Notes under the pieces: generated by a model
Told to the model about the DNA's origin: nothing
What the model saw: only the letters and a program-made list of their open reading frames with translations
The model's database searches: none
Source: Buxus sempervirens
Lineage: Eukaryota; Streptophyta; Magnoliopsida; Buxales; Buxaceae
NCBI GenBank assembly: GCA_947561395.2
Contig: OX387187.1
Coordinates: 18,581,829 to 18,645,828, forward strand
Length of the DNA: 64,000 nt
Direction: 5' to 3'
Position numbers and translations under genes: made by a program
Shown here: positions 1,401-64,000 of the stretch, in pieces
Numbering within the stretch: position 1 is the stretch's first letter
Layout of the letters: each line of letters starts with the position of its first letter

Positions 1401-2068
1401 TTGAGCGTTAGTTCAAATTCGCAGATTTCTGGGCTTTTTTTAGTTTTATGAATTTTAGATATTTTTATGGTTTTTCTTTGATTCCAATCATTGGGTTTTC
1501 ACTCTAAATCATTTCTAAAACATTCATAATCCTCTCCTACTAACTTATTATAAATCTAAGGATATCTACAAAGATTTAATCCATTCAACCATCATTTTTA
1601 TAAAAACTCATTTAAACATAGGATATCAATGCGAAAAACCTCAAACACGCTATATTATGATCATGTCTCAATACAAATCTCTTAGATTACTCAATCACAT
1701 AATGAAAATAGGCAAATCCTCTAGTTTTCAAGTGTTTGCTACTTGTCTTAATATGAGAATCCACTTGCACGAGATTCTTCAAACTTTCTTTCTTCTTTTC
1801 CCCATCCTTCTCACTCTACCTCTAACGCCCCGGATTCGTGTTCTTCATTAAAGATATAACACGTCTCCTAGGGGTTAGTTAAGGATCTCAATAATGGTGA
1901 TCGCTGGATAATCACCCACATTTTATATCACATCAGAGTGCACAATTAAAAATTCCTATCCAGGCAAGTTAAGACATCATCCAATACGTCAAATGGGTCC
2001 AAGTTACTACCTTATTACAATTCTCACAAATTCAACTTAACAAGCTTAAGGCCAAATAACCTGCTAGA

Positions 2069-2145
2069 CTAAGGACGGTAGTAATAGTCCTCCTCCCTAT
2101 ATGTATCAGCCGGATCTACCCCCGTAGGCACCTCACCACGAATAT
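2069..2145 (-). CDS. W terminal exon: short acidic Tyr-rich peptide, EEDYYYRP-stop
   Basis: Downstream of a polypyrimidine acceptor (AG now AA) the minus strand is open for 74 nt to TAG at 2071-2069. The peptide is acidic and ends Arg-Glu-Glu-Asp-Tyr-Tyr-Tyr-Arg-Pro. If the acceptor is at its conserved position, the exon begins at codon position 2, as in the seven other copies in this window. No start codon lies in this exon, so it would be a C-terminal exon. The encoded protein is unknown. It could instead be a conserved nucleic-acid motif, but synonymous third-base variation between copies argues for coding. Confidence 0.5.
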
Positions 2146-2369
2146 TTGAAAAATAAAACAACAACGAGGGAATGAGATACGAATATCTCAGCGAGTGACA
2201 CATGCATGCAGAAATAGTTATCACAGTTATAAGACATGCGTCGATAAATAATCAACAATTTAAACCAACGTAATTCCGATAACAATACAAACAAGGTCAA
2301 TGTCATGCCTATGGTTACATTGATTAATCTACATGCCAAGTAGACACTCCACACCTCCATGTACACAGT

Positions 2370-2487
2370 TCCGACCTACTCAGGGTATCGGACACTCTGA
2401 AATGACGGCCTACTCAGGGTATCGTCATCCAATGCCGGCCTACTCTGGGTATCGGCACTGACAACCAGGCCTACTCAGGATATCTGG
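2370..2487. repeat. Four-hairpin array with constant 13-nt loop and covarying stems
   Basis: Four units share the loop CCTACTCAGGGTA, with one or two changes in some units. Their stems are TCCGA/TCGGA (2370-2374/2388-2392), ATGACG/CGTCAT (2402-2407/2423-2428), TGCCG/CGGCA (2433-2437/2453-2457) and CCAG/CTGG (2465-2468/2484-2487). The last three also have a G-T pair closing the loop. All four stems differ in sequence but all pair. It sits about 225-340 nt upstream of the acceptor in the W intron. Confidence 0.8.
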
Positions 2488-4150
2488 CTGCCCTACACTG
2501 GTCGTGGCAACACACAAGGCCATGCAATTACACCAATAAACACATATCATCACATTACTAAGCTTAACAAGGATCCATGGGAAAGCTAAACCCAAAGCCG
2601 ATAAATAACCGATAAAACTCCGCATTTAGTACACACATCACAAGTTGTTCCAACCAGAACTTCAACTCACACAAGTGTTCCAACCAGAACAATAATTACT
2701 CACAAGAAAGCCAGTAAATAATCTTTGTAAAATAATTTAAAACTTTCCATCACGAAAACAGGGTTTAATAACTCTTAATCAATTACAGTGTAATCCAAAG
2801 AACTGATATAAAAGCCCCAATGTTGGGTATCCCAAACATCACCTAACATGTTGCCCTACGCCTACCTTGGAGGCTCTTAGGAAAATTCCCGAATCTATCT
2901 TCAATGTTCTCATAAGTAATTTTGTCTCTAATGTCCTAAACAAGTACTTCGCTAAGTGATCAGAGACTTTCTAGCATCCAAATCCCCATTGGCTTACTCA
3001 ATTTTGAACTTCAGCAAGAAAAATGGACTATGCGCTCACTTCCTGAAGTGAGCACCAGTAAGCGCCGAGTGAGCGGATCGTTTTAAGTAAAAACCAGGGT
3101 ATGCGCTCACTCGATGGTAAGTGTGCGCACCCGATTTCGGTCGCATGACGAGGCGCACGCAAAACGATGCGTGCCTCGGGATTTGTTTGGAGTCGCCACT
3201 GCCTGATGGGGTGCAGGCAGACACCTGGGTGCCTAAGTTCTTCTACTAAGGCTTTTGGTCTGCGGCTTTTGAGATTCTAAGTAGGGGCTCGGTTGCGGTC
3301 TGGGGAAGTCCGTAGACACCCCAGTCCACCCCGTCAAGTGACGGATCCCATAGGTTTCCCTGGTTTGAGTCAACTCAGTTGGTTTCTCACTCACCCGATT
3401 CCTGTTCCAGCATGTAATTTGATTAAGTCTGGCGGGACCGCCAAAGTGGTGTGGGTCCCTTTACTTGATTTTATCTTTTTAATTAAAGTGATGTGGGTCT
3501 GATTGGGCGGGCCCCGTTGGAAGGCCCGCGGTATCCCTTGGTGGGCCAGATGTGGCCCTTTGGACTTTGGGTCAATTTGAATTGATTTTATTTTGGAGTT
3601 CAAGTGGGATTAGTTAAGTGGATTTCATGCCAAAAGTGGGCCGGGGTTGCTTTGTGGGCCCTTGAGTGGGCCCCACAGTTGTTTGCCAAGTGATTTTGGT
3701 TATCTTGATTAATTATACCAAAATGGGCCAGGTATTGGGCTTGGGGCCCTTTACCTGGGCTTGGGCTTGAAAGCCCAAGGCTTCTTGAGTTAGGGTTTTG
3801 AAACCCTAACCTTGGTTGGTTAATGGGTTTGGTGGGCCCTATAGGCCCTACCCTTTGCCTCGGCCAAACCATAACTTAACTACACATGCATGCCCCAAAT
3901 TGGGCTTTGGTGGGCCTCAAAGGGTCTGGCCCACTCAACTCTTTTAATTGTCTTATTTAAGCACAAATAGGTTGGTCGGGCTTGGTGGGCCCCGTTGGAA
4001 GGCCTACCGGAAATCAATTTGGACCGGGTCGGTCCATGGCCCATCTTGGGTTTCCGGGTGACCCGGAAACCCTACTGGTTCGCCCGGAGTTGATCAAACA
4101 AACCAAAAAATCACACAAGATCAGCAAAATGGCAAAAAATGAATTCTGGC

Positions 4151-4259
4151 TGTGTATCCGGCATCTTTTGCCGGCTACACACAGTGTTCTGTGTATCCGG
4201 AATATTTAGCCGGCTGCACAGAGGCTTCTGTTGATCCGGCCTGAGTTGCCGGATCAACA
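4151..4259. repeat. Triple long-stem hairpin cluster (X1)
   Basis: Three back-to-back hairpins. The first pairs TGTGTA-CCGGC with GCCGG-TACACA (4151-4162/4170-4181). The second pairs CTGTG..CCGG with CCGG..CACAG (4189-4200/4210-4221). The third is a perfect 12-bp stem TGTTGATCCGGC/GCCGGATCAACA with a 7-nt loop (4229-4240/4248-4259). Corresponding triplets occur in X3 (26440-26545) and the 3' LTR X4 (29868-29970), with changed but still complementary stems. Confidence 0.8.
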
Positions 4260-5272
4260 CACATAAGCCTTTTTTTTGGATTTTGGGCAGTGGGGTTGGG
4301 TTTTTGGATCTTCTAGGGATGTTCTGGCACTGTGACAGGGACCCAAGTGTCCCTGTCTTAGTTCCTCGTGCTCCACATGTCAATGATCACGCGAGGACAA
4401 CACAAATACATCAACACAAGCCTAGCATGCATGCTCTTTAATCATGGGAAATACATACATTTTTACAGATTTTCTTTATGCATGGAACAAAAGTGTGTGT
4501 GCAAGTGAGCATGCTTCACGTGTGAACATATGTTATGAAGGAGAGCATGCATACTTCTCACAAGTAGCAAAAAGGGCTTATCATGAAGGCACTTAAGGAG
4601 CACCCAACCACAATACATACTCCTATGATCTAACACAAGCCAACCTACCCTATCACCATTTACATGCTCAAAACAAAAGCACAATCATCCAAGCAAGATC
4701 ATTAGAAGAAGGGAAAGAGGGGGTAGTTAATATGGGGTACAATAGATGATCATGCTAAGGGGAACAAGCTCCCCCACAAATAATTAAAACCAAACTCAAA
4801 ATAGCAACTTAATGGGGGCTAAAAATGAGATGGACTCTCTCTTATCCTTATAGACCTTCACATTACCAAAAAAAGGAGAAGAAAAGGCATTCAAATAGAC
4901 ATCCATACCAAATTTATGCTAGGGAAAAGACAACATTAGAAAACTTTTCAGAAAAATCTCATTATAATATATATGCAACACAACATGATGGGGAGCCTCA
5001 CCTTGAGGTTGGAATCCTCTTTGAGGATGTGCTTGAGGTACCTTGTGGTGCCACCGTCCTTGGGCAGCACCTCGTCCTCTCCGAATGATCTCCAAGACCT
5101 CCTTCTTCTCACTTGAATGTGGTGGAGAATGGCGGTCGAAAATGGTGGTGGAAAATGGTGGTGGAGGGTTTAGGGAACCATGAAGAGAACTTGGGAGAGA
5201 TGGGAGAGATGGGAGAGAAGGAGCATGGAGAAGAAGATGGTGGGAGAAAAAGTGTTCCACCAAGAATGTGCT

Positions 5273-5309
5273 CAACCCCCCATACGTATGGGGGGTTGGT
5301 CTTTTTATA
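5273..5309 (-). promoter_or_regulatory. X1 core promoter: TATA box plus 26-bp perfect palindrome
   Basis: On the minus strand TATAAAAA (rc of 5302-5309) is followed within a few bases by a perfect 26-bp palindrome, 5273-5298. It is six C, ATACGTAT, six G, extended three more complementary bases on each side. The expected start site about 25-30 nt below TATA falls at the far edge of the palindrome. The 3' LTR X4 keeps the 14-bp core CCCATACGTATGGG (24894-24907) at the same place after its own TATA-like box. Confidence 0.6.
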
Positions 5310-5589
5310 GTGGGGGGTATGGGTATGCATGCATGTGATGTGCATGCATGCATAGGGGACATAATTATGGGGGAGAGAGAGAGATAGAAGGTTATGGATG
5401 GATGGCATGCATGTATGATGCACATGCATGCTCATCAATCATGAGAGAGAGGGGATGCATGCATGGGTGATGATGTATGATCATGGGGGGAAAGAGAGAG
5501 AGAGAGAGGGGTGCATGCATGGGTGATGCCCATGCATGCCCATAGGGGACATCAATCATGAGCAAATCTTGGTATTTGTGGATTGGTCC

Positions 5590-5745
5590 CTGGAACTTTG
5601 GATTTTTACAGATTTAGTCCCTGATACTTTTGGATATTTACAGATTTAGTCCTTGATACTTTTGATATTTACAGATTTAGTCCCTGATACTTTTGGATAT
5701 TTACAGATTGTTCCCTGGGATATATTCTCAAGTTTTGATGCTTAT
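5590..5745 (-). repeat. 33-34-bp tandem repeats in X1
   Basis: About four units built on ATTTACAGATTTAGTCCCTGATAC, with T-rich spacers. Related single or multiple units occur at 24300-24450, 28380-28470 and 46340-46480 in the other X LTRs. It lies upstream of the X TATA box on the minus strand, so in U3. Confidence 0.65.
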
Positions 5746-7015
5746 GGATCTAGTCCCTGATACCCTTGGATATCTGCAGCTTTACCATTGAGATATTTTT
5801 CATTGATTTGGGTAATTACAGATTTAACCCCTGAGACCTTTTTGCTCTGTTGCTTGCCACGTGTGCAAACTTTTGCCACGTGTGCAGTTTTCCAGCACGC
5901 TGCCCTAGAACTTCAACTGCTTACATCTTCTTCATCCGGACTCCGATTTGGGCAAACTTAATTGCGTTAGAATCATATCTGAGCCCTCTATCCAATGGCA
6001 TGGGGGTAAGCACCTGGATCGGATTTTAGCAGAAAGTCAACTTTCGGCTCCTCTTTAAGTTTGACCGGCCCATAGATCCTTCATCCGGACTCCGATTCCA
6101 GCAAACTCAGTTGCGTTAGAACCACGTCGAGATTCTCCATCCATTGAGATAGGGCAAGGTGACCAATTTTCTCTTGATCAAAAAGTCAATTTTTGATCCC
6201 TCAGGGTTTGACTTTTCTGCTGTCTTTTAGCACATTTTTTCTATTTTATTTGGTTTGTTCAAAATTTGGGTGCTTACAGTAAGTGGGCGCGAGCTCGGCG
6301 CGAGATAGGCGCGAGAAGGGCGCGAGATAGGCGCATCTAAATTAAGTGGGCACGAGCTGAGCGCCAAGTGGGCACGATTTCGGCGCCGGGTTAGATTTCT
6401 TAGGCGCCTACTTCCCGAAGTGGGCGCAAGTGGGCGCCAAGTGGGCGGATACCCACTGCAATTTTTAAGTCTCTGTTATTTCGAGATCTCTATGTCTAGC
6501 TGATTTGTTTCGGTCTGTAACTACTTCTCTAGTCTCCCAATACCCCCAGAACACTTCCAAACCTAATTTGGATTTAATCTAACATGATTCCCATTTATCC
6601 CCAATTCCGCTGTGTGAAACCTTTCGGAACTGTCTTTGCCCAGAAAACCGAGAATACTTCATTCAATAAACATGCATTCATTCAAACCAAATACACGAAT
6701 AAACCAAAGACTCGGTTGTAAAGCAGTGCCACTCACCTTTCTATGCTCCCAAGTCTTGGAAACGAGCAACCCAGAAAACCCCAAACTCCTTCGGCCGTCG
6801 GCTTGCTCTAATCGAACAGAGGTTCTGCTCGCGAGGGAAAGACTCTTCCGAACTTCTGATCCGCGAAACTCATTGGCAGTAAATCTTCTCCATCTCGACT
6901 CTCCCACAGCACTTCTCCTACTCCTCCTCTCGAAGAGCCCTAGACGAAAACGCAGCCGAACCTTTCAATATGAAATACGCGTATTCAGGGCAAAACAAAA
7001 ACCTAATTTTCCTAA

Positions 7016-7401: not shown

Positions 7402-8164
7402 TGTAACACCTCATATCCGGGTTACGTAAATGAAACCTTAACTTGAGTCCAGAGTGTTAATTAATCCACATGATCTATATCAAAGTAAAGGAAAACATGA
7501 ATGATACAAGAATATGCCATAGAATATCAATATCAAAATCAACTAAATCCCAATCACCATCCTTATGAATAAATATCAAGTATCAAATGATTACTCATAT
7601 TATCAAAATACAATCCAAAACAAGTCTATACAACCAAAAGAATAGCCATACGTCCCTTTTCTTCTTCCTCTATTCTTCTTTCTTCTTCCTTGAGATCAAA
7701 CCCTAATATACAAGCTTTGGTTGGAGCAGTTTTAGAGAGGGAAGGAGGAGATTTTTGTTCAGAAAAACCAGGTAAGAACAAACAACAGAAAAGTTATTGT
7801 TTTGGAGGTTAGGTGTGTTTTTGAGATCTTAAAGACATGATTTTCTATCCAGAAAAGGATAGAGGCTTGCTGTGATCGTGTGGATCATCTTTGGGGTGAT
7901 ATTTAAGTGCCTTTAGAGGAGATTTTAGCCCCAAAAACAAGTAAGTAGTCGCTTTAAAATTTGCATAAAATATATTTCGTGTTTATTCAATATTCAGGTT
8001 CATTTGGTGATTTGATGACTTGTTTACATGTTATATGGAGCTTTAATTGTTCGAAATTGTTCTAGCATGTTTATAAAGTATTTTAGAAAGATTTAGAATG
8101 GATTTGATGCATTGGTTTATGTGTTTTCGATTTTTTATGGATTTACGCAACTTTTTGGAAGTTG

Positions 8165-8390
8165 CAGTAGCGATAGGCCGCCCGAACAGTTGCTCAAGCA
8201 CCCCTGTCTGTCTGTTTTAAATTTTGAAAAACCCAATAGCAAATAAAACTCAGAAGAACTGTCGCCCGAACCGTCACTCAAGTGATTTCTCGAGCGACCA
8301 ACCTCTGAAACAACCTGTTAGCTTAGCCCGTTTAAGCGCCCAAATGCCGCTCGAGCGCCCTTCTGTCAAATTTCGAGAAATTGCCAAATG
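8165..8390. repeat. GC-rich reiterated-word cluster in Z intron
   Basis: Words of the type GCCCGAAC, GCTCAAGC, CTCGAGCG and GCGCCC recur about ten times with spacers, several self-complementary (CTCGAG). It starts about 225 bp after the donor, equivalent to the clusters in P1, W, Y and V. Confidence 0.5.
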
Positions 8391-8971
8391 GCCTAGTTTT
8401 TCGCCACAAAAATGTTTTTATGCAAATTAAACCTTTGAATTATTAAGTTTAGGGTATTTAGAGATAGTTTGCATTGGCGGATGTTTAAAATTCATTTTAA
8501 TAAAGATTTTGGGTAGATTTTACCAAAGAGGCACTTTTACTTAATACCATTGTTCCAAATAGTTGTCTTTTTAACCAAAGTTGATTTTATGAATTCCTAC
8601 ACTTGTATTTGGGTTACATGAAGGTATTTTGTGCATCGATGGAGTCGATAAAAATTCGGGACATGGTTGCCCGTTGAAACCTAGAGTTTGGACATATGAC
8701 TTGGTACATCTTGTGTTGGTTTTTGGGTCACAGGTGTGACAAGGCAGGTGTCTAGTTTATTATTTCCACAAGGTGGATTTGGTTATTGTTAGTACAGATG
8801 AGGTTCTGTATTTGTGGGTGTTATTGGGAAGTATGTCCATTCCCTGGATTGGGTTTCCATTGTTGATTGGGCTTAGCAATTACTTGGATCCATAGAATAG
8901 CTAGTAAGTGAAATGTCTTCTAAAGTGGTTTGAATTCTGTGTCATAGGCATTCCATCATCTCAAGGATGGT

Positions 8972-9023
8972 ACCATTCCTGGATAGGTCGGTCGCTACGT
9001 TACCCACTCCTGGATAGGTTGGG
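8972..9023. repeat. Hairpin pair homologous to W and P1 arrays
   Basis: CCCA (9003-9006) pairs with TGGG (9020-9023) around a 13-nt loop CTCCTGGATAGGT. The preceding unit pairs ACC with GGT (8972-8974/8990-8992) around the same 13-nt loop plus one closing mismatch. Read on the minus strand the loop is ACCTATCCAGGAG, alignable with the P1 loop ACCGATACTGGAG. It lies about 325-375 nt upstream of the Z acceptor. Confidence 0.6.
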
Positions 9024-9348
9024 CCATACATGCTAACTCATTCCGGTCGTCGGTTGGGTTCTTCCGTTGGTGTTGAATTGCTAGTCAACAGGTGCGGCTG
9101 GTCCACTTGTAATTCGATTAGGTAACATATTGGTACATGTCTACTCTCTTTCTCTGGTTATCGTTTTCATGAGTCCCATGACGTGAAATAATTGTGTTTG
9201 ATTTATTTTCATTTAATCATTGTTGAACCGTATTTTATTGTGGCTATCCTGATTAGTCGTTGCATATTTGTACTGTTACCAACTATTTGCATGACTACTT
9301 ATTGAGATGTTGTTTCTCACATTATTGTTTTATCGGTCTTGTTTTCAG

Positions 9349-9434
9349 ATATTCCTAGTAAGAACATTGTTGGGATAGACACTTCGAAGGATTATACTGA
9401 CTACCAGGAAGAGGATTACTTTATTCCTGTCTAG
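9349..9434 (+). CDS. Z terminal exon: acidic peptide ending EEDYFIPV-stop
   Basis: Follows a strong acceptor (TCTTGTTTTCAG). Open for 83 nt from codon position 2 to TAG at 9432-9434. It encodes about 28 residues rich in Asp, Glu and Tyr, with the terminal motif Gln-Glu-Glu-Asp-Tyr-Phe-Ile-Pro-Val. The donor at 7940/7941 would make a 1.4-kb intron. There is no ATG in the exon, so it would need an upstream exon, possibly from an internal region when the LTR is the 3' LTR of an intact element (inference). Confidence 0.5.
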
Positions 9435-9749
9435 GATTAGGAACCTTTAATAACAAATTTGACTTGGTGTTTTGAGGGATTGTTGGATTCTTTAATTAGA
9501 TGACTTTGGTGGATGATGATATATTTTATTTTAGTTGACCAAAAACCAGAATTTGAATGATGGTTTAATATTGAATGACTTATTTTTATTATTCTACGCT
9601 TCTTGGTGAATTAATCTTTTATTTCTGCTCTCTGATTATAAATATTGATATTGTTTAAGTATGGTATTAGTTGTTTTGGGCCATTATTCTAACGAACTGG
9701 ATTTAGGTTTGTGTTGTTAAATAAACCTGGATCTGGGGTGTTACAACTA

Positions 9750-9832
9750 CTACTCCACGTAATAGTCCTCCACTCTATACTCCGGGTAATCACCAACAAT
9801 ATCTACCCTCTGAGTATCATCCTCTCCAAGAG
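9750..9832 (-). CDS. Q terminal exon: peptide ending VEDYYVE-stop
   Basis: 80 nt from the presumptive acceptor (AG now AA, 9834-9833) to TAG (9752-9750), open from codon position 2. Acidic, with Glu-Tyr-Arg-Val-Glu-Asp-Tyr-Tyr-Val-Glu at the end. The stop codon shares a base with the TSD of Z. Confidence 0.45.
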
Positions 9833-10645: not shown

Positions 10646-12745
10646 GGTTTAACCTAAACATACACGTTTGTATTCTCGCTTGTATTCGACAACAGCCGCA
10701 AGCGACAAACCAAGCCGAGCGACTGAGGAAGAAGAAGAAGGAGGAAGAAAGGACTGGGTTTTGTGTTCTTCATCGTCCAGGGTATTGCTGGGTGATAGAG
10801 AATCATTGTTTAAAGAAGAGAAGGAGAAACTACGCACGAAAGATGTAGGTGACATTGTTTTCATTCGTTTTTGGTATTTACGTTCGTTTAATTGCAAAAG
10901 CATGTTTTTATGAGATATATTGATGTATTTAGTTTGATAACAATGTTATAAGTATGTTAGAATGATATTGGACAAGAAAAATCACGTTTTGAAACTGTTT
11001 CTGTTCGTTTTTGGGAGGCCGTAAACCTCGACTGTGCTCGGCGATCCTCGGCACTAGTTATAAATCTTAGACCGCCGAAGACCGCTGGAAGACTTATCGT
11101 CGGCGACCTGTTTTGCACTACCGCTAACCACAGACCGCTGAGGCAATCCTGAGCGATCCTAGGCGCTCTGTGCAGAATTTGCAGATTTGCATAATTTCGA
11201 ACCTGATTTAATTCCAAACTATTTTTAGACAATTTTAATGATTAATTAGGATGTTTTAAGACCAAAATAAATTATCTAATTCCCTGTTTTACAAAAAAAT
11301 AAACTAGGAAGATATTTAGGACATTAGTTGCCAAACTTTGAAAGTAATTGAGAAATCTAGTTTTTGGAAAACCTAACTATTATTTAATTACTAGAACATC
11401 TTTTAAACTACACTATAAACCAGAAAACTTCATAAAGAGAATTCAGAACTCAAATGACCCGAATATTGAAGTAATTGACAGATTTAACCTTTATATGCCG
11501 CTAGGCACCAACCCTTATAGAAATATTATATTTTAGGGAATTTTGGAGTCTAGTGGGCATATCTGGTTATGGATCCATAGTTGTTGCTAGATAGCTGAGG
11601 GATATGTCATTTGGGTTAAGTTTCTCCCTTGTGTGACGCGCTTCCTTTGCAAGTTAGTTTGTCTGGGAAGGTCCTATGTCTGGAGGGACACCCCGGTGAG
11701 CTGCTGGTGATTCCCTGTACATGTGGATACGCGACCATCTCCATGTACTGATTCTGGTGCTGCATACTGGTGGTACATGCCAACTCTGATGGGTACGTGT
11801 GCAATAAGTCAGTGACTACAGCTCTTGTCTAAGTTGCGCTGCATGGGACTTGAGTATCATTAGTAGCATTGCTTCTAAGCCACACAGTAGTATAGCGATT
11901 GGTTGAGAATCATCTCAAAAGGTTTATCTATCTTTATGAGTCCTACAATGACACTGAAATCACAAACACTTATTATTATTGTATACATGCTGGAGGCATG
12001 TGATTGAGATATTGATCGGATGTGACTGTTTAGTGCATCCTAGCAAAGCATGAATTATGTTATTGATTTTGATATTGGATTCTTATAATAGAACTTGCTG
12101 AAATTCATCTCTAGAACTGTTTATCATACTGTTTTGTATTCATGAATGATACGAATGATTATAGGAGCCTGATTAGTCGATATTGCTTAATCGTGCATGA
12201 ACTGTTATTTTATTTATAATAACTGTTTAATCATGCATGTATTACCTACTAGGATATTCGAATCTCACCCTACTTTTATTTCATTTTTCAGCTGATACGT
12301 GAGAGGGGGATCATAGTAATTTCCAGGGAGAGGTAGCTGGGTATTTACCGGAGGATTACTTTTATCTGGATATTGTCTGAGGTGGAGGATTGTTATAGAC
12401 TTAGTTATATTTGATAGACTATTATTCATTTGGATTGATGTACTAGATAGATGAGAGAGATAGTAACCATTTTATTTTACCAGACTTTGATATTAATGTT
12501 GATGATTAACTTTAATGTTTATTTGAGGATTTTAGACTACACTTCCACACATACTTGTTTCCACACTCTGATAGTATAATAAAGTGAATGGATTATTTAA
12601 TTCTATTGTTTGGTATATTATTGATGATGTATATGATATGGGCCAGTAACACCTCGGATTTGGTTGTTGAACTAAATTCAGGTTGTTACAGTAGCGAACC
12701 GGGTTCGGGTCGGGTGCCGGTTTGCACTGACCCGGGTTCGGAACA
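10646..12745 (+). mobile_element. Y2: truncated LTR, same family as Y (35299-37671)
   Basis: The reverse complement of Y aligns over nearly the whole length: donor region GAT|GTAGGTGAC at 10844, GC word cluster at 11010-11175, the 11616-11804 block and acceptor at 12291. The right end is ...GGGTTCGGAACA, a variant of the Y terminus. The left terminus (U3 with TATA, about 230 bp in Y) is missing. Y2 abuts a 5' LTR stub of the large X element, about 3.3 kb of which is also missing, so one deletion may have removed both. Confidence 0.75.
12292..12380 (+). pseudogene. Y2 terminal exon, broken by in-frame TGA
   Basis: After the acceptor TCATTTTTCAG the frame starting at codon position 2 runs 86 nt to TGA (12378-12380), the same length as in Y. 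Its fourth codon position has TGA where Y has CGC, so the peptide is interrupted early. The end reads Pro-Glu-Asp-Tyr-Phe-Tyr-Leu before three more residues. Confidence 0.5.
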
Positions 12746-18400: not shown

Positions 18401-18791
18401 TGTAGAACCCCGGAACCAGGTCCACCCTTATCGGGTTTACATTGGCTCCTGAGCACTAGCTTAGGGCCCAAAGTAATGAAAACTAACTTCAGAACTAACC
18501 AGATACAAAAATAACATCCTAAAATTTTTCAAAAAAACGGCTATATAACGCTTGTACATACGAGAATGGGCTAAGCCCCCAATCACAGATAATTACCTGA
18601 TAATCACAAAATAAGTAATACATCCATTCAAAAAAAACTAAACCATCTAGATATACAACAAAAATAAGCTCACTAAGTTCACACCCTCTCTCCCTCTTCC
18701 CAATTACAACATATACAATATGTACAATTTCCAAAAACATTAACATATACAACTATCCAAAAATTGACAACCACAAAAGTGCAATCCAGCC

Positions 18792-18883
18792 CTATCTAGG
18801 ATAGTAGTAATCCTCAGGGCGATAATCATCATCAGTATCACTATTTCTTCCTACTCCAGTTCGTGCTTACCCTGCAAATCTGT
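18792..18883 (-). pseudogene. U2 terminal exon, one premature stop, ends EDYYYPR-stop
   Basis: 89 nt from acceptor to TAG, open at codon position 2 except for one TAA where U has CAA. It aligns codon for codon with U, with no indel. In the last 13 codons six differ only at synonymous third positions and two change the amino acid. The terminal motif is Arg-Pro-Glu-Asp-Tyr-Tyr-Tyr-Pro-Arg. Confidence 0.55.
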
Positions 18884-20956
18884 CTGAAAACAAAACCGGT
18901 AAAAACAAAAACGCGTGAGACTAATGTCTCAGTAAGCAGCATAATGCAAGATATAAATAGTTGATGCAATTTTACATAATAAAATAACATGCTGCATATC
19001 ATACGATCAATTCCATTAAATCATGTTATGAACAATTCACATATAACGATACCATATCAAAAATAAAGTGTATAAGATTCATGAATTAGCGTGTCTGTAA
19101 ATCGGGTTAACCACCCTTAGCTGGTTTGCCACCTCACTACTCGCCTTCGAAGCCGCGCACGGTCATCATACGAGTGGAGCACCCACGTATGGGCTGGCAC
19201 GCTGCAGCTCATCGATCACACACGAAGGCCTCACCGATCCCACACGGTGGTACGCAATTAGCCAGGGGTATTAACTCGACAAGCCAACACTAATGCACTA
19301 TCTATACTGACTGTAGATCCACAACCCTTAATACTGCCTAGACGCGTATAAAAATTAATCAATCAAATAGTTTACTAAACAAACTCATAAGAATTCAACT
19401 GCCAAAAGCACAACCAAGTTCAAGTGAATCTCGCCGTTCACTTACCATTCAATCCTTAGGCTCCTTGCCTTTTGCAACTAACACGAAGCCTCAGCTTCGA
19501 TCCCAAATTACAAATCACAAATCGTTTTCCAAATCAAATCATTCACGAATAAATCGACAGTTAGTTTGAAATCATTAATTACTCTGCAAATCTAATTCTA
19601 ACTAGTTAATTGAAAACTAAACCTGATCAAATCAATAAAGAACTTGTGTATATGCTATATATCGTTAGAAATCTCTACAAGTCTAGTTTCCAACACAACA
19701 AACGGTTCATAATTCAGAGTTTCCTACAAGGAGTTATGGCTACTTTAGTACAGGTGGTTTTAAACAGCCGCGAAACTACCGGACGGAAGTCATCGAATTT
19801 TCAGAAATTTTCTTGAAATACCTCGAATTCTGATCGGTTCCAAACCACTTCCAATCAACTACAAATGTCCTAAACTAAATTTTAAACTATTGATATGAAT
19901 TTTTACGCGAAGATTACTAGCCTTCGCAAACCGCAGAAACTTTACACAGATTTAAACCAAATAAAAGAATGAGTTTACTTTTAAACTTCAAATTGTCAAT
20001 TGATCTTCTTCCTGCAATTCCATGTCATTCTTGCCACCAATAACCTCTTTGTAAACCCTCTTATCAAGCTAACAATTTCACGAAAGTGTTACGACGAATT
20101 GCTCCTGACATCCATTCAAACCTTCAACCCCCAAATCAAGATAGAAATGCTATAAAATGTCAAATTTCATAACTGAAATTTTTTTTGATTTAGATAACCA
20201 CCAGGACACTTCATGACAGTAGCATATGAACATTAAGATAAGACTCCCTAACCATCCTAACCATGCTTTAATCACCCCAAATCTCAAATAAGAATAAGAC
20301 TATTCTTTACTTCTGAAACACCTGAATACTTCCCAGCAATAAAAACCATAATCTAACAAACAACCATCTAAACCTAAATTACGATCTGAACCTAAATTAC
20401 AACCCTCATCACAACTGACAAACCATACAAACACCTGAACCTAAATTATAATTCTAAAAATAACAATCTGATCCCTAGTATACTTCAATGTCAATCAACT
20501 CAATTAAATTTTAATTCAAAGGCACAATACGATCAAAAGCACTCCAATCCAACCCAGTCATTGCATATTCTTAATAAGATTACCCCAACATGAGCACTAA
20601 CAGATTCTACATTGATTGCCTAGAACAAGCATGTTTCATTATCAACAATGTTCAACAAGGTTGGTCATCAGATTCTTTTGCAAATTAGCTTTTTAAAACA
20701 ATATACTAATCAAACAGTAAGTTACAGCAACAAAAACAACAGTAGCCCAATAAGAATCGATCAAACAGAATAGAAACAGGAATCCACAGAAACCCAACAG
20801 AATCAATCAAAACAGAAACCCAACAATAATCGAAACCCAATTGTAATCAACAGGGATCGGGCAAAATAGTCCCAACAGCAATCAATCGATCGAACAGAAA
20901 TGATAAAAAAAAACCAAACAGTAACCAATCGAACAAAAAAAAACATGCTACTTACT

Positions 20957-21300
20957 GATTTCGCAAATCCACGCCCAAACCCTCTTCTCTTCTTCCCTCT
21001 TTCTTTTCTTCTCTTCCTCCTCTGCTTCTTCTTCCTTTCTTCTCTCCCTTTCTTTTCTTCTTCTCTTTTCTCTTCTCCTTCTCTTCTGCGGCTAAACAAC
21101 TAAACGAACACCCCTTCTCTTCTTCCTCTTCTCTTCCTCTCTTTTCTCCTCCTCTTCCACTCGTTTTCCCGCTTTTTCTTTTTTTTTTTGTGTTAACCCC
21201 CAACAACGACCAAGATAGACGCCCCCTTCCGTCTTCTTCCTCCGTTCCCCTTCTCTCTGCAATTTCCTTCCTTCTTCTGCGTTTTCCTTTTTTTTTTGTC
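20957..21300 (-). promoter_or_regulatory. Purine-rich first exon of U2
   Basis: On the minus strand almost pure A/G, with many GAAGAAG and GGAAGAG words, ending at a GTAAGTAG donor. GAA-rich tracts are known exonic splicing enhancers. The same composition precedes the donors in U, V, Y and P2. Confidence 0.5.
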
Positions 21301-21622
21301 CTCCAAACCCTTGACGAGCAAACCTCGACAAGCAACCCCCAAATGAAAGAACCTCCGGTTCTTTCACTTTGTGTAAGCCACTTAATTTGGCTTGGTTCAT
21401 TGAGATGGAACCGACCCAACCCATTCAACCGAAATAATTTTAACCCTTTAACCCATTAAACGACTAAACCCCCTAAATCTCTAAATTAAATACTCAATTA
21501 AACCATCCAACCCCTAAATCGCTTTAATAAGCTAAACCCAATTGGATTTTTTTTCCAATTAATCTAAATCTTTATTTGCTCTTATTTACAATTCTTAAAA
21601 TTCCAAATTCCAGGGTTTTACA

Positions 21623-24499: not shown

Positions 24500-24781
24500 G
24501 TGCATCATCCATGCATGCAACACCTCATACATCTCTCTCTCTCTCCTCCATGAGAACCTATGCATACATTCCCCCATGCCACATGCATACATCTCTCTCT
24601 CTCTCTCTCTCCCACTCATGATTAATGTTCCCTATGCATGCATCCCCTCATGCCTCATGCATGCATGTGTGTGTGTGTCTCTCTCTCTCCCACATGGGCA
24701 TGCATCATCATCTCACCATGCATGCATCTCTCTATCTCTCTCTCTCCCACATGGGCATGGATCATCATCTCACCATGCATA

Positions 24782-24820
<39 letters not shown>
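24500..24820 (+). repeat. CATGCATG / (CT)n microsatellite block
   Basis: Alternating CATGCATGCAT words and CTCTCT runs, the longest about 36 nt at 24783-24818. Mirrored in X1 at 5320-5560 on the other strand. Frames through it are spurious. Confidence 0.8.
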
Positions 24821-24822
<2 letters not shown>

Positions 24823-34568: not shown

Positions 34569-34578
34569 TTGTTTATTT

Positions 34579-35298: not shown

Positions 35299-35676
35299 TG
35301 TAACGCCCCCAACCCGGGTCAGTGCAAACCGGCACCCAACCCGAACCCGGTTCGCTACTGTAACAACCCGAATTTAGTTCAACAACCAAATCCGAGGTGT
35401 TACTGGCCCATATCAATTACAACATCAATAACATACCAGACCAAAGAAATCAAAATCCCATCCATATATTAAACTATCAGAGTTGCGGAAACAAGTATGT
35501 GCGGAAGTGTAGATCAATATCCTCAATTAAACATAAAGCTTGACCATCAGTCAGTAATATCAAAGTCTGGTAAAATGAACTGGTTACTATCTCTCTCTCT
35601 TATCTCTCTCATACATCAATCCAAATAAATGATAATAAACCAATCAAAAATGCTAAATCTATAACATCAATCCACC

Positions 35677-35765
35677 TCAGATGAGATCTGGATAATAATA
35701 ATCCTCCTGCGAATACTCGGCTATCTCTCCCTGGAAGTCTAAGAGACCCCCCTCTCGCGTATCAG
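35677..35765 (-). CDS. Y terminal exon: peptide ending QEDYYYPDLI-stop
   Basis: Acceptor at 35767-35766, then 86 nt open from codon position 2 to TGA (35679-35677). It encodes about 29 residues, acidic, with the motif Ser-Gln-Glu-Asp-Tyr-Tyr-Tyr-Pro. The upstream frame through the acceptor is also open, a chance extension into intron sequence. Confidence 0.5.
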
Positions 35766-36894
35766 CTGAAAAAAATGGAATAGAAGTAGGGTGAGATACG
35801 AATATCTCAGTAGGTAACACATGCATGATTAAACAGTTAATATACGGAAAGTAACAGTTCATGCACGATTAAGCAACATCGACTAACCAGGCTCGCATAA
35901 TCATTTATACCATACATGAACACAAAACAGTTTGGTAAACAGTTCTAGAAATGATTTTCAGTAAGTTTTAATATAAGAACTCAATAGCCAAATCAGTAGC
36001 ATAATCCATACATTGCCAGGATGTACTAAGCAGTCACATCCAACCAATATCCCAATCACATGCATCCCGCACGTGCATAATAATAATAATAATCATATCA
36101 AGTGTTGTGTTTTCAGTGTCATTGTAGGACTCACAAAGATAGATAAACCTTTTGAGATGATTCTCAACCAATCGCTATACCACCGTGCGACTTAAGAGCG
36201 ATACTACTAATGATACTCAAGCCCCATGCAGCGCAGCTTAGACAAGAGCCGTAGTCACCGACTTATTGCACACGTACCCATCAGAGTTGGCATGTACCAC
36301 CAGCATGCAGCACCAGAATCAATACATGGAGATGGTCGCTTATCCACATGTACAGGGAATCACCAGCGGCTCACCGGGGTGTCCCTCCAGACATAGGACC
36401 TTCCCAGACAAACTAACTTGCAAAGGAAGCGCGTCGCATATAGGAGTAACTCAACCCAAATGACATATCCCTCAGCTATCTAGCTACGACTATGGATCCA
36501 TAACCAGCTATGCCCACTAGACTCCAAAATTCCCTAAAGTATCATAATTCTATAAGGGTTGGTGCCTAGCGGCATATAATGGTTATATCTGTACATTTAC
36601 TTCATTATTCAGTTATTCGAATTCTGAATTCTCTTTATAATGTCTTCTGATTTATAATGCCATTTAGAAGTGTTTAGATAATCAAATGGTAGTTAGGCTT
36701 TTCCAAAATCACATTTCTCATTTACCTTCAAAACTTGGCAACTAATGTCCTAAATATCTCCCTAATTTGTTTTTCTGTAAAACAGGGAATTAGATAGTTT
36801 ATTTTGGTCTTAAAAGACCTTAGTTAATCATTAAAATTGTCTAAAAATAGTTTAGAGTTGAATTAGGTTCGAACTTTTGAAAAATTGGAATTCT

Positions 36895-37075
36895 GCTTAG
36901 AGCGCCTGGGATCGCTCAGGATCGCTCCGGGCGGTCTCCAGTCGGCGGTAGTGCAAATTCGAGCGCCCACGGTCCGTCGTCCCGCGGTCCACGGCGTCCT
37001 AAATTTTATAACCAGCGCCTAAGATCGCCGATGAGCGCCGAGTTCAGTCGAGGTCGGCGGTCATACAAAATCGAG
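36895..37075. repeat. GC-rich reiterated-word cluster in Y intron
   Basis: Words GATCGCTC, GCGCC, GGTCGGCGG, GTCCGTCG and GATCGCCGATGAGCGCC recur, alternating strands. The diverged counterpart in Y2 is 11010-11175. Confidence 0.5.
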
Positions 37076-37671
37076 CAGAAACAGTTTTAAATCATGATTT
37101 TTCTCGTCTAAACTCATTCTAATGTATTTCTAACATGCTTAGCTAACTAAATACAACATTACATATCATAGAAACATGCGTTTGCGATTAAACAGAGGTA
37201 AATCCAATTTTAAAACCAAAACGATGTCACCTACCTCTATACGCTGATTTCTCCTTCTCTATTCTGAACAATGGCGAACCTCTAACACTGAGAAACTCTC
37301 TGGACGATGAACGCACGCCCAGCCCTTCCTTCTTCTTCTCCTTCTTCTCTTCTCTTGGTCGTTCAAACAGGTTTCGTTGCTTGCAGCTTCAATACGAGCG
37401 AGAATACAAGTATAAAAATTAGGTTATTTCTTTATACATATATATACCCCCTGATCCTACGCATCCCCCATGCAACTCTTCTATACACCTTGCCCAATTA
37501 GAATACATACCTCGATATCTCACGATCGGACGGTCAGATCTGCGTCTAATTCTGGATCTCCGCTAAGTTGATCACCCCCCTACAATATTAAAATGTTTCT
37601 ATCAATCATAACTCTCGGTAATATTATTTACTAATTTAATTTATTATTTAAGGAAAATTCGGGGTTTTACA

Positions 37672-42389: not shown

Positions 42390-42649
42390 TGTAAAACCCC
42401 ATTCCAGATTATACCTTAATTATTAAACTTAATTATCTAAAGTGAGATTATTAGACTAATTAAGTGATTGTGTTATGAAGATGGGGTAAATATGGATTAT
42501 AGTTAAGGATTTAGGGAAATCAAATTGAACTTTATTGAAGTTATTAAGGGAAGCTAAGTTAGTGCTATGTCTTAATTACAATTGGCTAAGCCATCCTTCA
42601 ATTAGATCTAGTGAATTGGAAATCAAATTCTAAAAAATTTAGAGTTAAG

Positions 42650-46500: not shown

Positions 46501-46922
46501 CACTTGCCACGTGTGCAGCTCTCTGCCACGTATGCAGTTTGCCGGTTTTGCCGCTTGGAAACTTTGACAGCTCACATCTTCCCCATCTTGACTCCGATCT
46601 GGGCAAACTCAGTTGCGTTAGAACTGTATCGGAGCCCTCTATCCAATGACATAGGGGTAAGCATCTAGATCGGGGTTTAGCAGAAAGTCAACTTTCGGCT
46701 CCCCCTCAAGTTTGATCAGCCCACAGAACCTTCATCCAGACTCCAATTCCTGCAAACTCAGTTGCATTAGAACCGTGTCGGGATTCTCTATCCATTGAGA
46801 TAAAGCAAGGTGGCCAATTATCACTTGATCAAAAAGTCAACTTTTGACCCCTCAGGGTTTAACTTTTTAGCTGGGTTTTGCATTTTCGGAACTTCTAGGA
46901 GCGCAAAAATGAGGTGCTTACA
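43550..46922 (-). mobile_element. X2: solo LTR of family X inside the GGTACC array, TSD CCTCC
   Basis: 3373 bp, exact TSD cctcc (43545-43549, 46923-46927), + strand TGTGCGCGCG...GAGGTGCTTACA. Minus-strand donor ACAAG|GTATCA (exon ends 45905). In place of the TATCCGG hairpins it has GGCGCGAG words at 44850-45000 and GGCGCCGAG/GAGCTCGGCG words at 46255-46310, again one shared lexicon on both sides of the promoter. Confidence 0.9.
44850..45000. repeat. GGCGCGAG word cluster of X2
   Basis: At least six variants of GGCGCGAG/GCGCCAAGCGCGAGG in 150 bp, several palindromic (GGCGCTAGACTAGCGCC near 44978-44994). It occupies the place of the hairpin triplet in X1 and X3. Confidence 0.55.
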
Positions 46923-49294: not shown

Positions 49295-49374
49295 ATCTGC
49301 TTGGTGAGCCACATATTGGGGCAGATATTGAGGGTGAGCTTGAGGGCAGGCCCGAGGACTTTTACTACCCATAG
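49295..49374 (+). CDS. V terminal exon: peptide ending PEDFYYP-stop
   Basis: After the acceptor GGATTTGTTTTCAG, 77 nt open from codon position 2 to TAG (49372-49374). 26 residues, about a quarter Asp or Glu, final Arg-Pro-Glu-Asp-Phe-Tyr-Tyr-Pro. Confidence 0.5.
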
Positions 49375-61007: not shown

Positions 61008-61488
61008 TGTAAGATCCTGGATTTTTTTTGGAATTTTAATTAAGATTAAATGGAGATTAAAGGATTTATAAACGAGATTAAGGGATTTAATGAGGTTAAT
61101 TAAATTAAACTTTAAAAGACTTGATTGCTTGGTCAGGTTCGGGATGGTTCACTTGAAGTGAACAAGCTAAATTGTTTTGAGTTCGGTTCACTTGGATAGA
61201 AAAATTTGTTAGGTGCTTGAGACCGGTTTAGTTGATTTAGGTGTAACTTGAATTTATTTGGTTTAATTGGGTAAATTGGTCCGGTTCAATTGGGTTCGGT
61301 TTAGTGGGTTGGTTAGTTAGTTAATGGAGGTTTAGTTTATTTAAATCTATTATATAAATTGTGGTGGTGTATTGAAGTGGGTTTAAGTGGTTTATTTAAA
61401 TAGGTTTAGTTGGTTTAATGGGTTATTTTAAGAGGTGGGTTCACTTTTAGTAAACCGGTTTAATGGGTCATTGGTTTAACCGGTTTAA

Positions 61489-61654
61489 TATATATAGAAC
61501 CCCAAGGGTTCCATTTTCACCTTCATCCGTAGGAAGAGGAAAGGAGCGGAGGGAGAGAAGGAGAGAAAGAAGAATAGGAAGAAGGGAGGAGAAGAGAAGG
61601 AGAGGAGGAGAAAGGAAGAGGAAGAAGAAGGGAGGACGGCTGATCAAACTAAAC
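61489..61654 (+). promoter_or_regulatory. U promoter and purine-rich first exon
   Basis: TATA box followed by about 130 nt dominated by GGAGAG, GAAGAAG and GGAGGAG, then the GTAAGTAG donor. No ATG between TATA and donor. Confidence 0.6.
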
Positions 61655-62549
61655 GTAAGTAGCTTGTTTCTCTCTCTCTCTCTACGGCGCTGTTTTTGAT
61701 GAATTGGAGTTTGTTGTGAAACTCGAAAATGATGATTCTAAAATGATTAAATTTGTTAGGTTTGATTTAGGTTAGTATGCTTGGACTATAATAAGTAATT
61801 TTAAGTCTTTTCGTAAGCTATATGGAGCATGACAATTGTTCAAAGAAACGAAGTTACTCACTGGTTCGTGTTCGTGTGGAAGAAGATGAGTTTTGAAAAA
61901 TAATTAAATTCTGGTGCAAAAGATCATAAAGAAATTGAAATTGATGTATTATTTTAGGAAGAAATTAAGTTTTAGTGTAAACTTATACTATATTGATAAA
62001 TTAGTATACATAACTTAAAGAGTTAAGTTTTAGTTCAGATTTTAGTTAAATTCAACAAATTAGTTTGAACCCCAAATACATAATTATATTTTAGTCACAT
62101 TTTGAAAGAAAAATAAATAATTAGGGAAAACCCTAAATTATACCATGAAGTATACATTTTCTATATACAATAGATCTTTAGTAAATAATTAGATATAATA
62201 ACACTTACATTAAGATGCTTGGAAGTGATTTCTCATGTGTTTGGATAAGTTAAAGTTTGTTCATTGTTAAATTGTGTAACCTACGGCATACTTAAGTAAA
62301 TTGGTATAAAAAAAAAGGCAATTGGTCTATGGTATTTACATAACAATGATATATTATATCTGTGGATAGTGAACCTGCATCCGCCACAGACATAAGTTCT
62401 AGGGGTAGTGAATTCAAGTTCACCACATGCTTTGAGGCATTGTGGGTAGTAAACTGAAATTCACCCCATAAGCTTAAAATGGTGAGTTTGTTAAACTGTG
62501 GTTTGTTTTATGGTTTGGTGGGCTTGGTTGTAGAGCTGGATCCATATCT

Positions 62550-62715
62550 AAGCTAGGTATTGTGTTGGGATGAGATAACATAGGCCTGTGCGGCTCCCTC
62601 ATCAGGTATTGTGTTGGGATGAGGTAACACAGGCCCAGTGTGGCTCCCTCGTCAAATATTGTGTTGGGATGAGGTAACACAGGCCTAGTGTGGCTCCCTC
62701 ATCAGCTATTGCATG
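62550..62715 (+). repeat. About 60-bp repeats with TGTGTT/AACACA hairpins in U intron
   Basis: Three copies of ATTGTGTTGGGATGAGGTAACACAGGC type plus GTGTGGCTCCCTC. Copies two and three keep a perfect 6-bp stem TGTGTT/AACACA. Copy one is decayed. Confidence 0.75.
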
Positions 62716-62849
62716 CGTAATTTATAATCTTGTCCAGCATGTGATACACGGTTCTGGGGGTTGAGGACGGCAGTTCACCCTAGCTCACTAGGGGCCGAGG
62801 GTTGTGAACTTGCATCCTCCTCGGAATGTGCCATAGCAACCCATAAAGT

Positions 62850-62955
62850 CAACTAGATGGTCTCAGTGAGATCACTAACTCGATGGTCTAATAGAGATCA
62901 CTAACTCGATGGTCTATTAGACATCACTAACTCAATGGTCTGAAGAGATCACTAG
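62850..62955 (+). repeat. Short repeats CTCGATGGTCT..AGAGATCACTAA in U intron
   Basis: Four units of about 28 bp. The stem around each loop varies: GTCTC/GAGAT, GTCT/AGAG, GTCT/AGAC, TCT/AGA. Confidence 0.6.
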
Positions 62956-63414
62956 CTTGCTATGGTTGGACTGGGTTGTACTTGCCAGCTCATGCATGTC
63001 TCATGCTTGAGTACTCCGCTTTGGAAGAGTGATCCTAGCTAGATCTTTCAATTGTAAGTCGTGAGGTGGCGAATTGGACAAGTGAATTTAATCATTGTTA
63101 TTACATGAGATTGTTACTGAGATTTTACTGATATTGCAGTTTGGTTTAATCTGAGTTTATTGGTTTATGAGTTAAGAATCTGTAAAGTTTAAGTATTGTT
63201 TATGGGAGAATGAAATGCCTCTTCGCACGATTTTACCAGAGATTAATCGTATAGTACATAAGCATGCTATTAAATTGTTTTAAAGATTTGCATAAACTGT
63301 TTTTATCATGCTATTTTACTGTTTGAAACTGCATAAAATGTTCTTATTATGCATTATGCTGCTTACTGAGACGTTAGTCTCAAGCGTGTTTTGTTTTACC
63401 GGTTTTGTTTTCAG

Positions 63415-63506
63415 ATAAATCTGCAAAGCAACCACAAACTGAGGTAGGCAGAACTAACGAGCCGGATGACGACTACAACCCGGAGGATTATTATTATCCT
63501 GGATAG
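63415..63506 (+). CDS. U terminal exon: peptide ending PEDYYYPG-stop
   Basis: 89 nt open from codon position 2 to TAG (63504-63506). 30 residues counting the split first codon; basic/Gln-rich first third, then acidic, with Asn-Pro-Glu-Asp-Tyr-Tyr-Tyr-Pro-Gly at the end. The best-preserved copy in the window. Compare U2. Confidence 0.55.
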
Positions 63507-64000
63507 GGTTGGGCAATATTTTTTTTTGTAGTCGTCTATTTTTGGATTGTGTATAAATTGTAAATGAGAAAGAGAGAAAAGAAGTGAAAACCTTAGTAAA
63601 CTTTACTTTAAATCTGTAGATGTTGGATGGCTTAGTTGTTTTTGGAATGGTGTATATTATCTATATATTTTGAGTTTATCAGGTATTGGTTTGAGGGCTT
63701 GGCCCATTCTTATAAATACAGGCGTTATATAGCCGTTTTTCCGAAAAAAAATTTTAGGATGTTATTTTTGGTGTCTGGTTAGTTCTGAAGTTAGTTTTCA
63801 ATTAAATTTGGGCCCTAGGGTAGCGCTCGGGAGCCAGTATAAACCCGACACGTATGGACCTGGTTCCGGGGTGCTACATAGATAACTTGGAGCTACATAG
63901 ACATACGCATTTCATTACAAATCCATAGATTTGATGCGTTTGGAGAAAATATTTGTCTTTTCAGAAATTACAGTAAATTTAACTTTTTAGAAACAAAAAA

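What the first reader, a model, noticed from the sequence alone, without database searches (positions are those of the whole stretch)
1821..63878. A short spliced terminal exon ending in EDYYYP is conserved inside eight LTR copies
Seen: eight LTR copies carry a pyrimidine-rich acceptor followed by a short open stretch to a stop: W 2145-2069 (-), Z 9349-9434, Q 9832-9750 (-), Y2 12292-12380, U2 18883-18792 (-), Y 35765-35677 (-), V 49295-49374, U 63415-63506. Acceptor-to-stop distances are 74, 83, 80, 86, 89, 86, 77 and 89 nt, all 2 mod 3. The final codons vary mostly at silent positions (GAG GAY TAY TAY TAY CCN), and six of eight frames are fully open. The two broken ones each have a premature stop where the closest relative has an Arg or Gln codon. 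Inference: purifying selection acted on a C-terminal peptide encoded in the LTR. Since no start lies in the leader exon in that frame, the coding donor may lie in the internal region, so that the 3' LTR supplies the last exon. I know of no described retrotransposon family with this arrangement.
Basis: partly seen in the sequence, partly recalled or inferred. Interest (0 to 1): 0.93.

Follow-up and report, generated by a model that had tools for sequence, protein, structure and literature searches.

The report
Retrotransposon gene ending inside its LTR
A very common plant jumping gene appears to end its main protein with a short, conserved piece encoded inside its long terminal repeat and attached by RNA splicing, an arrangement that I did not find described and that could separate the RNA used for protein from the RNA used for copying.

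Summary
In detail: all eight LTR copies carry an acceptor-like site and a short frame ending in EDYYYP or a variant, all in one phase. The LTRs are solo or truncated copies of Del/Tekay-type chromoviruses. The own genome (676 Mb) has 2,245 matches to the degenerate EDYYYP pattern against 6 for the reversed control. Full-length relatives supply the missing partner: in 9 of 9 Y-type loci with a readable pol end, a phase-1 donor CAAG|GTAAAT follows the integrase region, about 40 bp before the 3' LTR. Splicing to the LTR acceptor would add a tail such as DTREGDLLDFQGEIAEYSPEDYYYPDLI. In eight of these loci the exon has pN/pS 0.05, other frames 1.7 and 0.7, though this rests on five synonymous and two other changes (P 0.005 to 0.045). 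I infer that unspliced RNA is the copying template and spliced RNA the complete message. Not shown: any RNA. The single W and U 3' flanks have stops before the donor; U, V and W copies give no clear selection signal; no full-length V, Z or Q element was seen. New variant of a known kind.

The parts
2069..2145 (-). W: LTR terminal exon, IRGEVPTGVDPADTYREEDYYYRP*; acceptor reads CAA here (CAG in five other W elements)
7402..9745 (+). [not shown]
9349..9434 (+). [not shown]
7941..7949 (+). [not shown]
9750..9832 (-). Q: LTR terminal exon, LGEDDTQRVDIVGDYPEYRVEDYYVE*; acceptor reads CAA
10845..10853 (+). Y2: LTR's own leader donor-like GTAGGTGAC
12292..12380 (+). Y2: LTR terminal exon, one premature stop
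18401..21622 (-). U2: solo LTR, 3222 bp, TSD CCTTG
18792..18883 (-). U2: LTR terminal exon, one premature stop
35299..37671 (-). Y: solo LTR, 2373 bp, TSD AGGAG, inserted in a LINE coding region
35677..35765 (-). Y: LTR terminal exon, DTREGGLLDFQGEIAEYSQEDYYYPDLI*
35766..35815 (-). Y: branch-site-like CCTACTGAG, hairpin GAGAT..ATCTC, pyrimidine tract and AG
37226..37234 (-). Y: LTR's own leader donor-like GTAGGTGAC
49295..49374 (+). V: LTR terminal exon, LLGEPHIGADIEGELEGRPEDFYYP*; LTR end at 49750
61008..63878 (+). U: solo LTR, 2871 bp, TSD TAGAT
63415..63506 (+). U: LTR terminal exon, KSAKQPQTEVGRTNEPDDDYNPEDYYYPG*
63364..63414 (+). U: branch-site-like TTACTGAG, hairpin GAGAC..GTCTC, pyrimidine tract and AG

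Best explanation
The exon is the last coding exon of the gag-pol gene of Del/Tekay-type chromoviruses. A phase-1 donor lies at the end of pol, about 40 bp upstream of the 3' LTR. Splicing to the acceptor inside the 3' LTR removes the polypurine tract, U3 and the LTR's own leader region, and adds about 25 to 30 residues ending in EDYYYP or similar to the integrase C-terminus. Because LTRs are copied, the exon sits in both LTRs and survives in solo LTRs. Inferred: the unspliced RNA is the template for reverse transcription; the spliced RNA is the message for the complete polyprotein, and its stop codon in the last exon would spare it decay triggered by an intron behind the stop.
For: Nine of 9 Y-type loci with a readable pol end (L009-L016, L034) have CAAG|GTAAAT in phase 1 with pol and an open exon in the 3' LTR, intron 1,924-2,328 nt. 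Eight of them (L014, one codon longer, left out): exon pN/pS 0.05, shifted frames 1.67 and 0.73; last 50 pol codons of all nine 0.10. The exon changes behind this are five synonymous third-position columns, all on one split between two types, and two single-copy first-position changes; P for at least 5 of 7 synonymous is 0.005, or 0.045 if all were transitions. Fourteen Y-type copies give 0.29 in the exon body against 1.17 and 1.29. L009 and L012 differ at 5 of 83 exon and 200 of 1,834 intron sites. Phase is kept in 54 of 55 recovered exon copies, with distances 53, 59, 62, 65 and 68. With G as last donor base the split codon is Asp, Ala or Glu. Behind the donor the unspliced frame differs between types. 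Exon pattern 2,245 against 6 reversed, donor pattern 359 against 0 reversed.
Against: No RNA or protein data. No genomic copy of the Y-type splice junction, though a spliced RNA without polypurine tract and U3 would hardly be copied. The only W 3' flank seen has a stop codon directly before the donor; the only U 3' flank has two stops before its candidate donor, and its site homologous to the Y donor reads GAT|GTGAAT. In the exon body W gives 1.6, V 0.95 (a shifted frame 0.28) and U 0.51 (a shifted frame 0.53), so these families show no clear coding signal. Only 2 of the 7 full-length elements listed (L009, L011) have one unbroken gag-pol ORF. GTAAATTTCGAGGACGAAATTT lies next to the polypurine tract and may be conserved for another reason.
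Confidence: 0.74

Rival explanations
1. The LTR exon is joined mainly to another upstream exon, for example after gag, giving a pol-less Gag message with this tail, as in the copia and BARE strategies.
For: Spliced Gag messages are known for copia, BARE1 and EVD (PMC3735527 and PMC12786077 passages). Other phase-1 donor-like sites are conserved in Y-type elements: CTG|GTAAGG behind RNase H scores higher than the pol-end site (9.8 against 8.4), and a weaker GCG or GTG|GTAGGC lies in the gag zinc knuckle in 4 of 5 elements.
Against: Those sites lie in stretches that encode conserved residues, so their conservation needs no splicing (my reading). The site right behind the last pol domain is CAAG|GTAAAT.
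Confidence: 0.1
2. The acceptor serves only a non-coding leader intron of the LTR (leader donor GTAAGTAGC to this acceptor), and the open frame is a by-product.
For: Six LTRs have a donor-like GTAAGTAGY or GTAGGTGAC 1.4-2.1 kb upstream of the acceptor, mostly behind a purine-rich leader.
Against: Synonymous excess in one frame in Y-type elements, phase kept in 54 of 55 copies, stop close behind EDYYY in 8 of 8 window copies. Both uses can coexist.
Confidence: 0.07
3. GAGGAYTAYTAYTAYCC is a nucleic-acid signal, such as a splicing enhancer, not a coding motif.
For: It lies 50-70 nt behind an acceptor and starts with GAGGA.
Against: 63 of 107 pairwise differences in the window motif fall on third codon positions (P 0.018 to 0.049), and the exon body upstream of the motif shows a synonymous excess in Y-type copies.
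Confidence: 0.04
4. The pattern is relic conservation by common ancestry, with no present function.
For: Y/Y2 and U/U2 exons are less alike than most LTR windows; U, V and W copies show no clear coding signal.
Against: The families are otherwise hardly alignable over most of the LTR; Y-type elements show a synonymous excess.
Confidence: 0.05

Closest known systems
Del/Tekay chromoviruses of plants
   Same: LTR termini, LTR length, PBS, gag-PR-RT-RH-IN order; the described elements match this group
   Different: The texts looked at describe no intron or coding exon in their LTRs: PMC4029996 has 0 occurrences of 'splic' and 'intron'; a passage of PMC12786077 says plant LTR elements generally lack introns, with exceptions including Ogre and EVADE
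CRM group A chromoviruses
   Same: A portion of the integrase lies within the 3' LTR (legend of Figure 3 in PMC3059260)
   Different: No splicing is described there (0 occurrences of 'splic'); here an intron of about 2 kb separates pol from the LTR exon
Drosophila copia, barley BARE1, Arabidopsis EVD
   Same: Splicing of a retrotransposon message so that template RNA and a translated RNA differ (PMC3735527 and PMC12786077 passages)
   Different: Those splices make a Gag-only message; here the splice lengthens Pol and the acceptor lies in the LTR
Pea and Medicago Ogre
   Same: A plant Ty3/gypsy element with an intron in its coding region
   Different: The Ogre intron lies between gag-pro and rt-rh-int (PMC6317226 passage)
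MMTV superantigen gene (recalled, no call)
   Same: A protein encoded in an LTR and expressed from spliced RNA
   Different: A separate accessory protein of an animal retrovirus, not the C-terminus of Pol

Membership tests
Del/Tekay chromovirus | U3 att close to TGTAACACCC and U5 att with GGG at -8 to -10 (PMC4029996) | tested here: met
   GGG at -8 to -10 in 6 of 6 LTR ends seen (W, Z, U2, Y, V, U). Departures: starts are TGTAACACCT (Z), TGTAAAACCC (Y, U2), TGTAAGATCC (U), none the commonest start; W has G at -2 and U2 has T at -6, positions the paper calls conserved
Del/Tekay chromovirus | LTR length between 1143 and 4831 bp (PMC4029996) | tested here: met
   2344-3222 bp for Z, Y, U, U2; about 2350 bp in Y-type full-length elements
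Del/Tekay chromovirus | PBS TGGTATCAGAGC next to the 5' LTR (motif recalled) | tested here: met
   Exact in L009, L012, L013; one-base variants in L011, L015, L016 and L018; not seen in L010
Del/Tekay chromovirus | gag, protease, RT, RNase H, integrase in this order in one ORF | tested here: met
   L009, 1568 residues, Pfam; one Y-type element only
Del/Tekay chromovirus | Type II chromodomain at the integrase C-terminus | tested here: inconclusive
   Pfam gave no chromodomain hit in L009; I take the residues before the donor for a chromodomain from recall of similar sequences
Del/Tekay chromovirus | RT phylogeny | not tested
   No tree was made
Spliced retrotransposon message | A splice junction seen in RNA | not testable with these tools
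   No RNA data at hand; no genomic copy of the Y-type junction
CRM group A | Integrase frame continuous into the 3' LTR | tested here: inconclusive
   Unspliced, the frame runs some codons into the LTR in L009-like copies but stops before it in L010, L012, L013 and L014

The most novel reading that the evidence does not exclude
A whole clade of plant chromoviruses carries a pol gene split between the internal region and the LTR, so that one intron holding the polypurine tract and U3 decides whether an RNA is template (unspliced) or message for the complete polyprotein (spliced). Hairpins at both splice sites could set the ratio. The acidic, tyrosine-rich tail would give the integrase a function, such as targeting, that the unspliced product lacks.
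Probability: 0.34. Interest if true: 0.87.

Novelty: new variant of a known kind. Interest (0 to 1): 0.74.

Why it matters
How plant Ty3/gypsy elements with a single gag-pol ORF divide their RNA between translation and copying is open. A coding exon in the LTR would give one switch for both and add a conserved tail to the integrase that annotation pipelines would miss if they end the gene at the internal region. It also means that many solo LTRs carry an acceptor with a coding exon, a possible source of chimeric host transcripts. It is directly testable in any long-read transcriptome of a plant that transcribes such elements.

Tried and rejected
Public collections: three patterns in viral contigs (acceptor-exon, hairpin-acceptor, LTR end plus PBS) gave 0 loci. 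A protein search with the U tail found no candidate; a control with the LINE ORF1 found none at E 0.001, so this database says little about plants. Rfam at gathering thresholds: 0 matches. Pfam on 10 ORFs and on 68 of the 203 stop-to-stop ORFs of at least 66 residues, some the same, found LINE domains, one KIX_2 match and weak DUF matches, but no chromovirus domain. Reading the exon from an ATG in the unspliced LTR was set aside by hand reading only: the ATG near the branch site is out of frame in U and V and followed by a stop in Z. A YPDL late-domain idea was set aside: in the table only Y-type tails have YPDL. An intron-less genomic junction was sought as proof of splicing: 0 in the genome for the Y type, 0 in 355 kb held for six junction strings; the leader junction search did not complete.

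Against my reading: window pairs; U, V and W copies; stops before the donor in the single W and U flanks; L033, four of five W loci, ten V loci and 20 of 20 further loci showed no donor, so they are solo or 5' LTRs or lack it; the search was for the Y-type donor; 1 of 20 U stretches looked like a 3' LTR; the W pol end matched only the copy already held. L017 has the donor behind a partial pol end only, and its two hits lie in different LTR types. In one search the U/U2 part failed; the Y/Y2 part shows exon body divergence 0.179 against 0.105 in the intron. Dropped rows: one search lost loci that my expressions missed (L025, L028, L029, L031, L033, L036, L041, L052). In one search, 19 of 20 copies are in phase if L041, missed by the expression, is counted by hand (62); L053 is 60. 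The 55 copies include both LTRs of some elements (46 elements). My note says 53 of 55 frames open; the right count is 52 of 55. Copies found by the EDYYYP pattern cannot test that motif itself.
Full report
What was checked. Acceptor-to-stop distances are all 2 mod 3, and the distance from acceptor to the GAG codon takes the values 53, 59, 62 and 68. The motif GARGAYTWYTWY occurs 8 times in the window, in exactly these copies, against 1.22 expected. The frame is open up to the motif in 6 of 8 copies (null 2.4, P 0.010) and closes within 5 codons behind EDYYY in 8 of 8 (null 2.8, P 0.00015). W and Q have CAA instead of CAG at the acceptor.

What carries it. Both LTR ends and a 5-bp target duplication were found for Z (7402-9745), U2 (21622-18401), Y (37671-35299) and U (61008-63878); these are solo LTRs. 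W, Q, Y2 and V are truncated, interrupted or nested. Six of 6 LTR ends seen have GGG at -8 to -10, the type A U5 att of Del elements (section 14 of PMC4029996). Between families the LTRs align mainly just upstream of the acceptor and at the motif, with a few other short matches. The block before the acceptor is a branch-site-like CTTACTGAG or CCTACTGAG with variants, a small hairpin (GRGAT..ATCTC or GRGAC..GTCTC in most copies, so both sides change together) and a pyrimidine tract. Folding is not exceptional against shuffles (z -0.6 to -1.6). Six LTRs also have a donor-like leader site (GTAAGTAGY or GTAGGTGAC) 1.4 to 2.1 kb upstream of the acceptor.

Genome-wide. The window lies in an assembly of 676.5 Mb. 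GARGAYTAYTAYTAYCC has 2,245 matches there and its reversed control 6 (only the first 100 places are listed). Nine pairs of hits 6 to 8 kb apart on one strand were fetched; eight showed LTR repeats, with identity 93.3 to 99.9%. L009 has LTRs of 2,346 bp, the PBS GAGATGGTATCAGAGC and one ORF of 1,568 residues with gag, protease, RT, RNase H and integrase domains. L011 has an equally long ORF; the other five elements listed have the frame broken.

The donor. In L009 to L016 and L034, 9 of 9 loci with a readable Y-type pol end, the residues EMQRKYP.LFPE.Q are followed by G|GTAAATTTC, an intron of phase 1, about 40 bp before the 3' LTR. L017 has the same site behind a partial pol end; L033 showed none. 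The acceptor in the 3' LTR lies 1,924 to 2,328 nt downstream, and the exon continues in frame: A, from the split codon G|CT, then DTREGDLLDFQGEIAEYSPEDYYYPDLI or close relatives. Without splicing the frame runs on to different ends: GKFRGRNFSFRRGGCKTPNFT, GKFRGRNFL or GKFQGRNFL, GKFRG. The pattern AAGGTAARTTTYRARGRYGAAATT has 359 matches in the genome, its reversed control 0. Intron bases from +3 on form an inverted repeat, AAATTTCG-AGGA-CGAAATTT, in most Y copies and in W, and GAATTTCG-AGGA-CGAAATTC in the one U flank.

Selection. Among eight Y-type loci (L014 left out for its different length) the exon has pS 0.161 and pN 0.0078, ratio 0.05; the same letters read in the other frames give 1.67 and 0.73. 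The last 50 pol codons of nine loci give 0.10. The pairs are not independent: the variable exon columns are 2, 0, 5 on codon positions 1, 2, 3, the five third positions all separating L010, L012 and L013 from the rest, the two first positions each changed in one copy. At least 5 synonymous of 7 has P 0.005, or 0.045 if all changes were transitions. L009 and L012 differ at 5 of 83 exon sites and at 200 of 1,834 intron sites. Seven of the eight have measured LTR identities of 97.0 to 99.9%; for L034 none was measured. Phase is kept in 54 of 55 recovered exon copies (46 elements), and 52 of 55 are open up to the motif. Among copies grouped by family, mostly solo LTRs, the coding-frame ratio in the exon body is 0.29 for Y59 (14 elements; shifted frames 1.17, 1.29) and 0.48 for Y62 (5; 0.88, 0.65), but 0.51 for U (8; 0.99, 0.53), 0.95 for V (7; 0.83, 0.28) and 1.6 for W (6; 0.81, 0.53). 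In the window pairs Y/Y2 and U/U2 the exon is less alike than most LTR windows. Solo LTRs evolve freely after they form, which may explain this but does not prove it.

Other families. The one full-length W element (L018) has the same donor, in phase 1 with the pol frame, but a stop codon directly before it; a pattern for this pol end matched only that copy. Of 20 U stretches only L060 looked like a 3' LTR. Its pol end has a donor-like GAG|GTAATA in phase 1 behind two stops, and GAT|GTGAAT at the place homologous to the Y donor. None of ten fetched V loci showed the Y-type donor, nor did 20 further LTR loci of several families; most LTR copies fetched singly are therefore not 3' LTRs with this donor. 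So the donor is shown for Y-type elements, probable for W and open for U, V, Z and Q.

Mechanism. Shown: the sequence signals, the phase match, and a synonymous excess in Y-type exons. Inferred: that splicing takes place; that the unspliced RNA, which alone keeps the polypurine tract and U3, is the template; that the spliced RNA is translated. A transcript that stops at the end of pol would carry the LTR's own intron behind its stop codon, a known trigger of RNA decay (recalled); moving the stop into the last exon would avoid that. What the tail does is unknown; by its place behind the integrase it could act in targeting, for which PMC3059260 discusses the C-terminus of CRM integrases, part of which also lies in the 3' LTR (section 6).

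Novelty. Ten paper searches were made; listings were seen, plus passages of PMC7730604, PMC11728184, PMC6317226, PMC7264820, PMC9289625, PMC11963269, PMC3735527 and PMC12786077, passages and section 6 of PMC3059260, and outline, passages and sections 14 and 15 of PMC4029996. Nothing seen there describes a coding exon inside the LTR reached by splicing. The library lacks most subscription journals, among them the survey of extra ORFs in plant Ty3/gypsy elements. Spliced retrotransposon messages and LTR-encoded integrase ends are each known; their combination is the new point, hence a new variant of a known kind.

Noticed in passing
23874-31048 and 25383-28894: A second LTR family of about 3.5 kb (probably Ogre-like, by recall of its TGGCAACTCTACTGGGG site) occurs as apparent solo LTRs; one seems nested inside another of opposite orientation. 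Further copies at about 3122-6278 and 43575-46922.
   Followed up: partly
33009-41099: A LINE with DUF4283, endonuclease, RT, zf-RVT and RNase H-like domains is cut in two by the solo LTR Y.
   Followed up: partly
21805-23157 and 42647-43553: Two tandem arrays: a 34-bp unit with AAGGAGCAAGGCGACTCC and a 22-bp unit with CTAAGGTACCCC.
   Followed up: no
L009 7267-7290 and relatives: The intron start at the end of pol is an inverted repeat directly behind GT, with A-T closing pair in Y and W types and G-C in the one U flank; it could mask the donor.
   Followed up: partly
G000:C1:25743188-25745520: Three exon-motif hits on one strand spaced by exactly 1158 bases suggest a tandem array of LTR pieces.
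   Followed up: no
window introns of the LTRs, e.g. 61008-63414: LTR introns of different families share GGATCCATA followed by AGCTAG-like letters and carry small family-specific repeats, seen by eye only.
   Followed up: no
one of the 68 window ORFs in alignment A1: A KIX_2 domain match (E 1.3e-10) points to a fragment of a host gene in the window; which ORF was not looked up.
   Followed up: no
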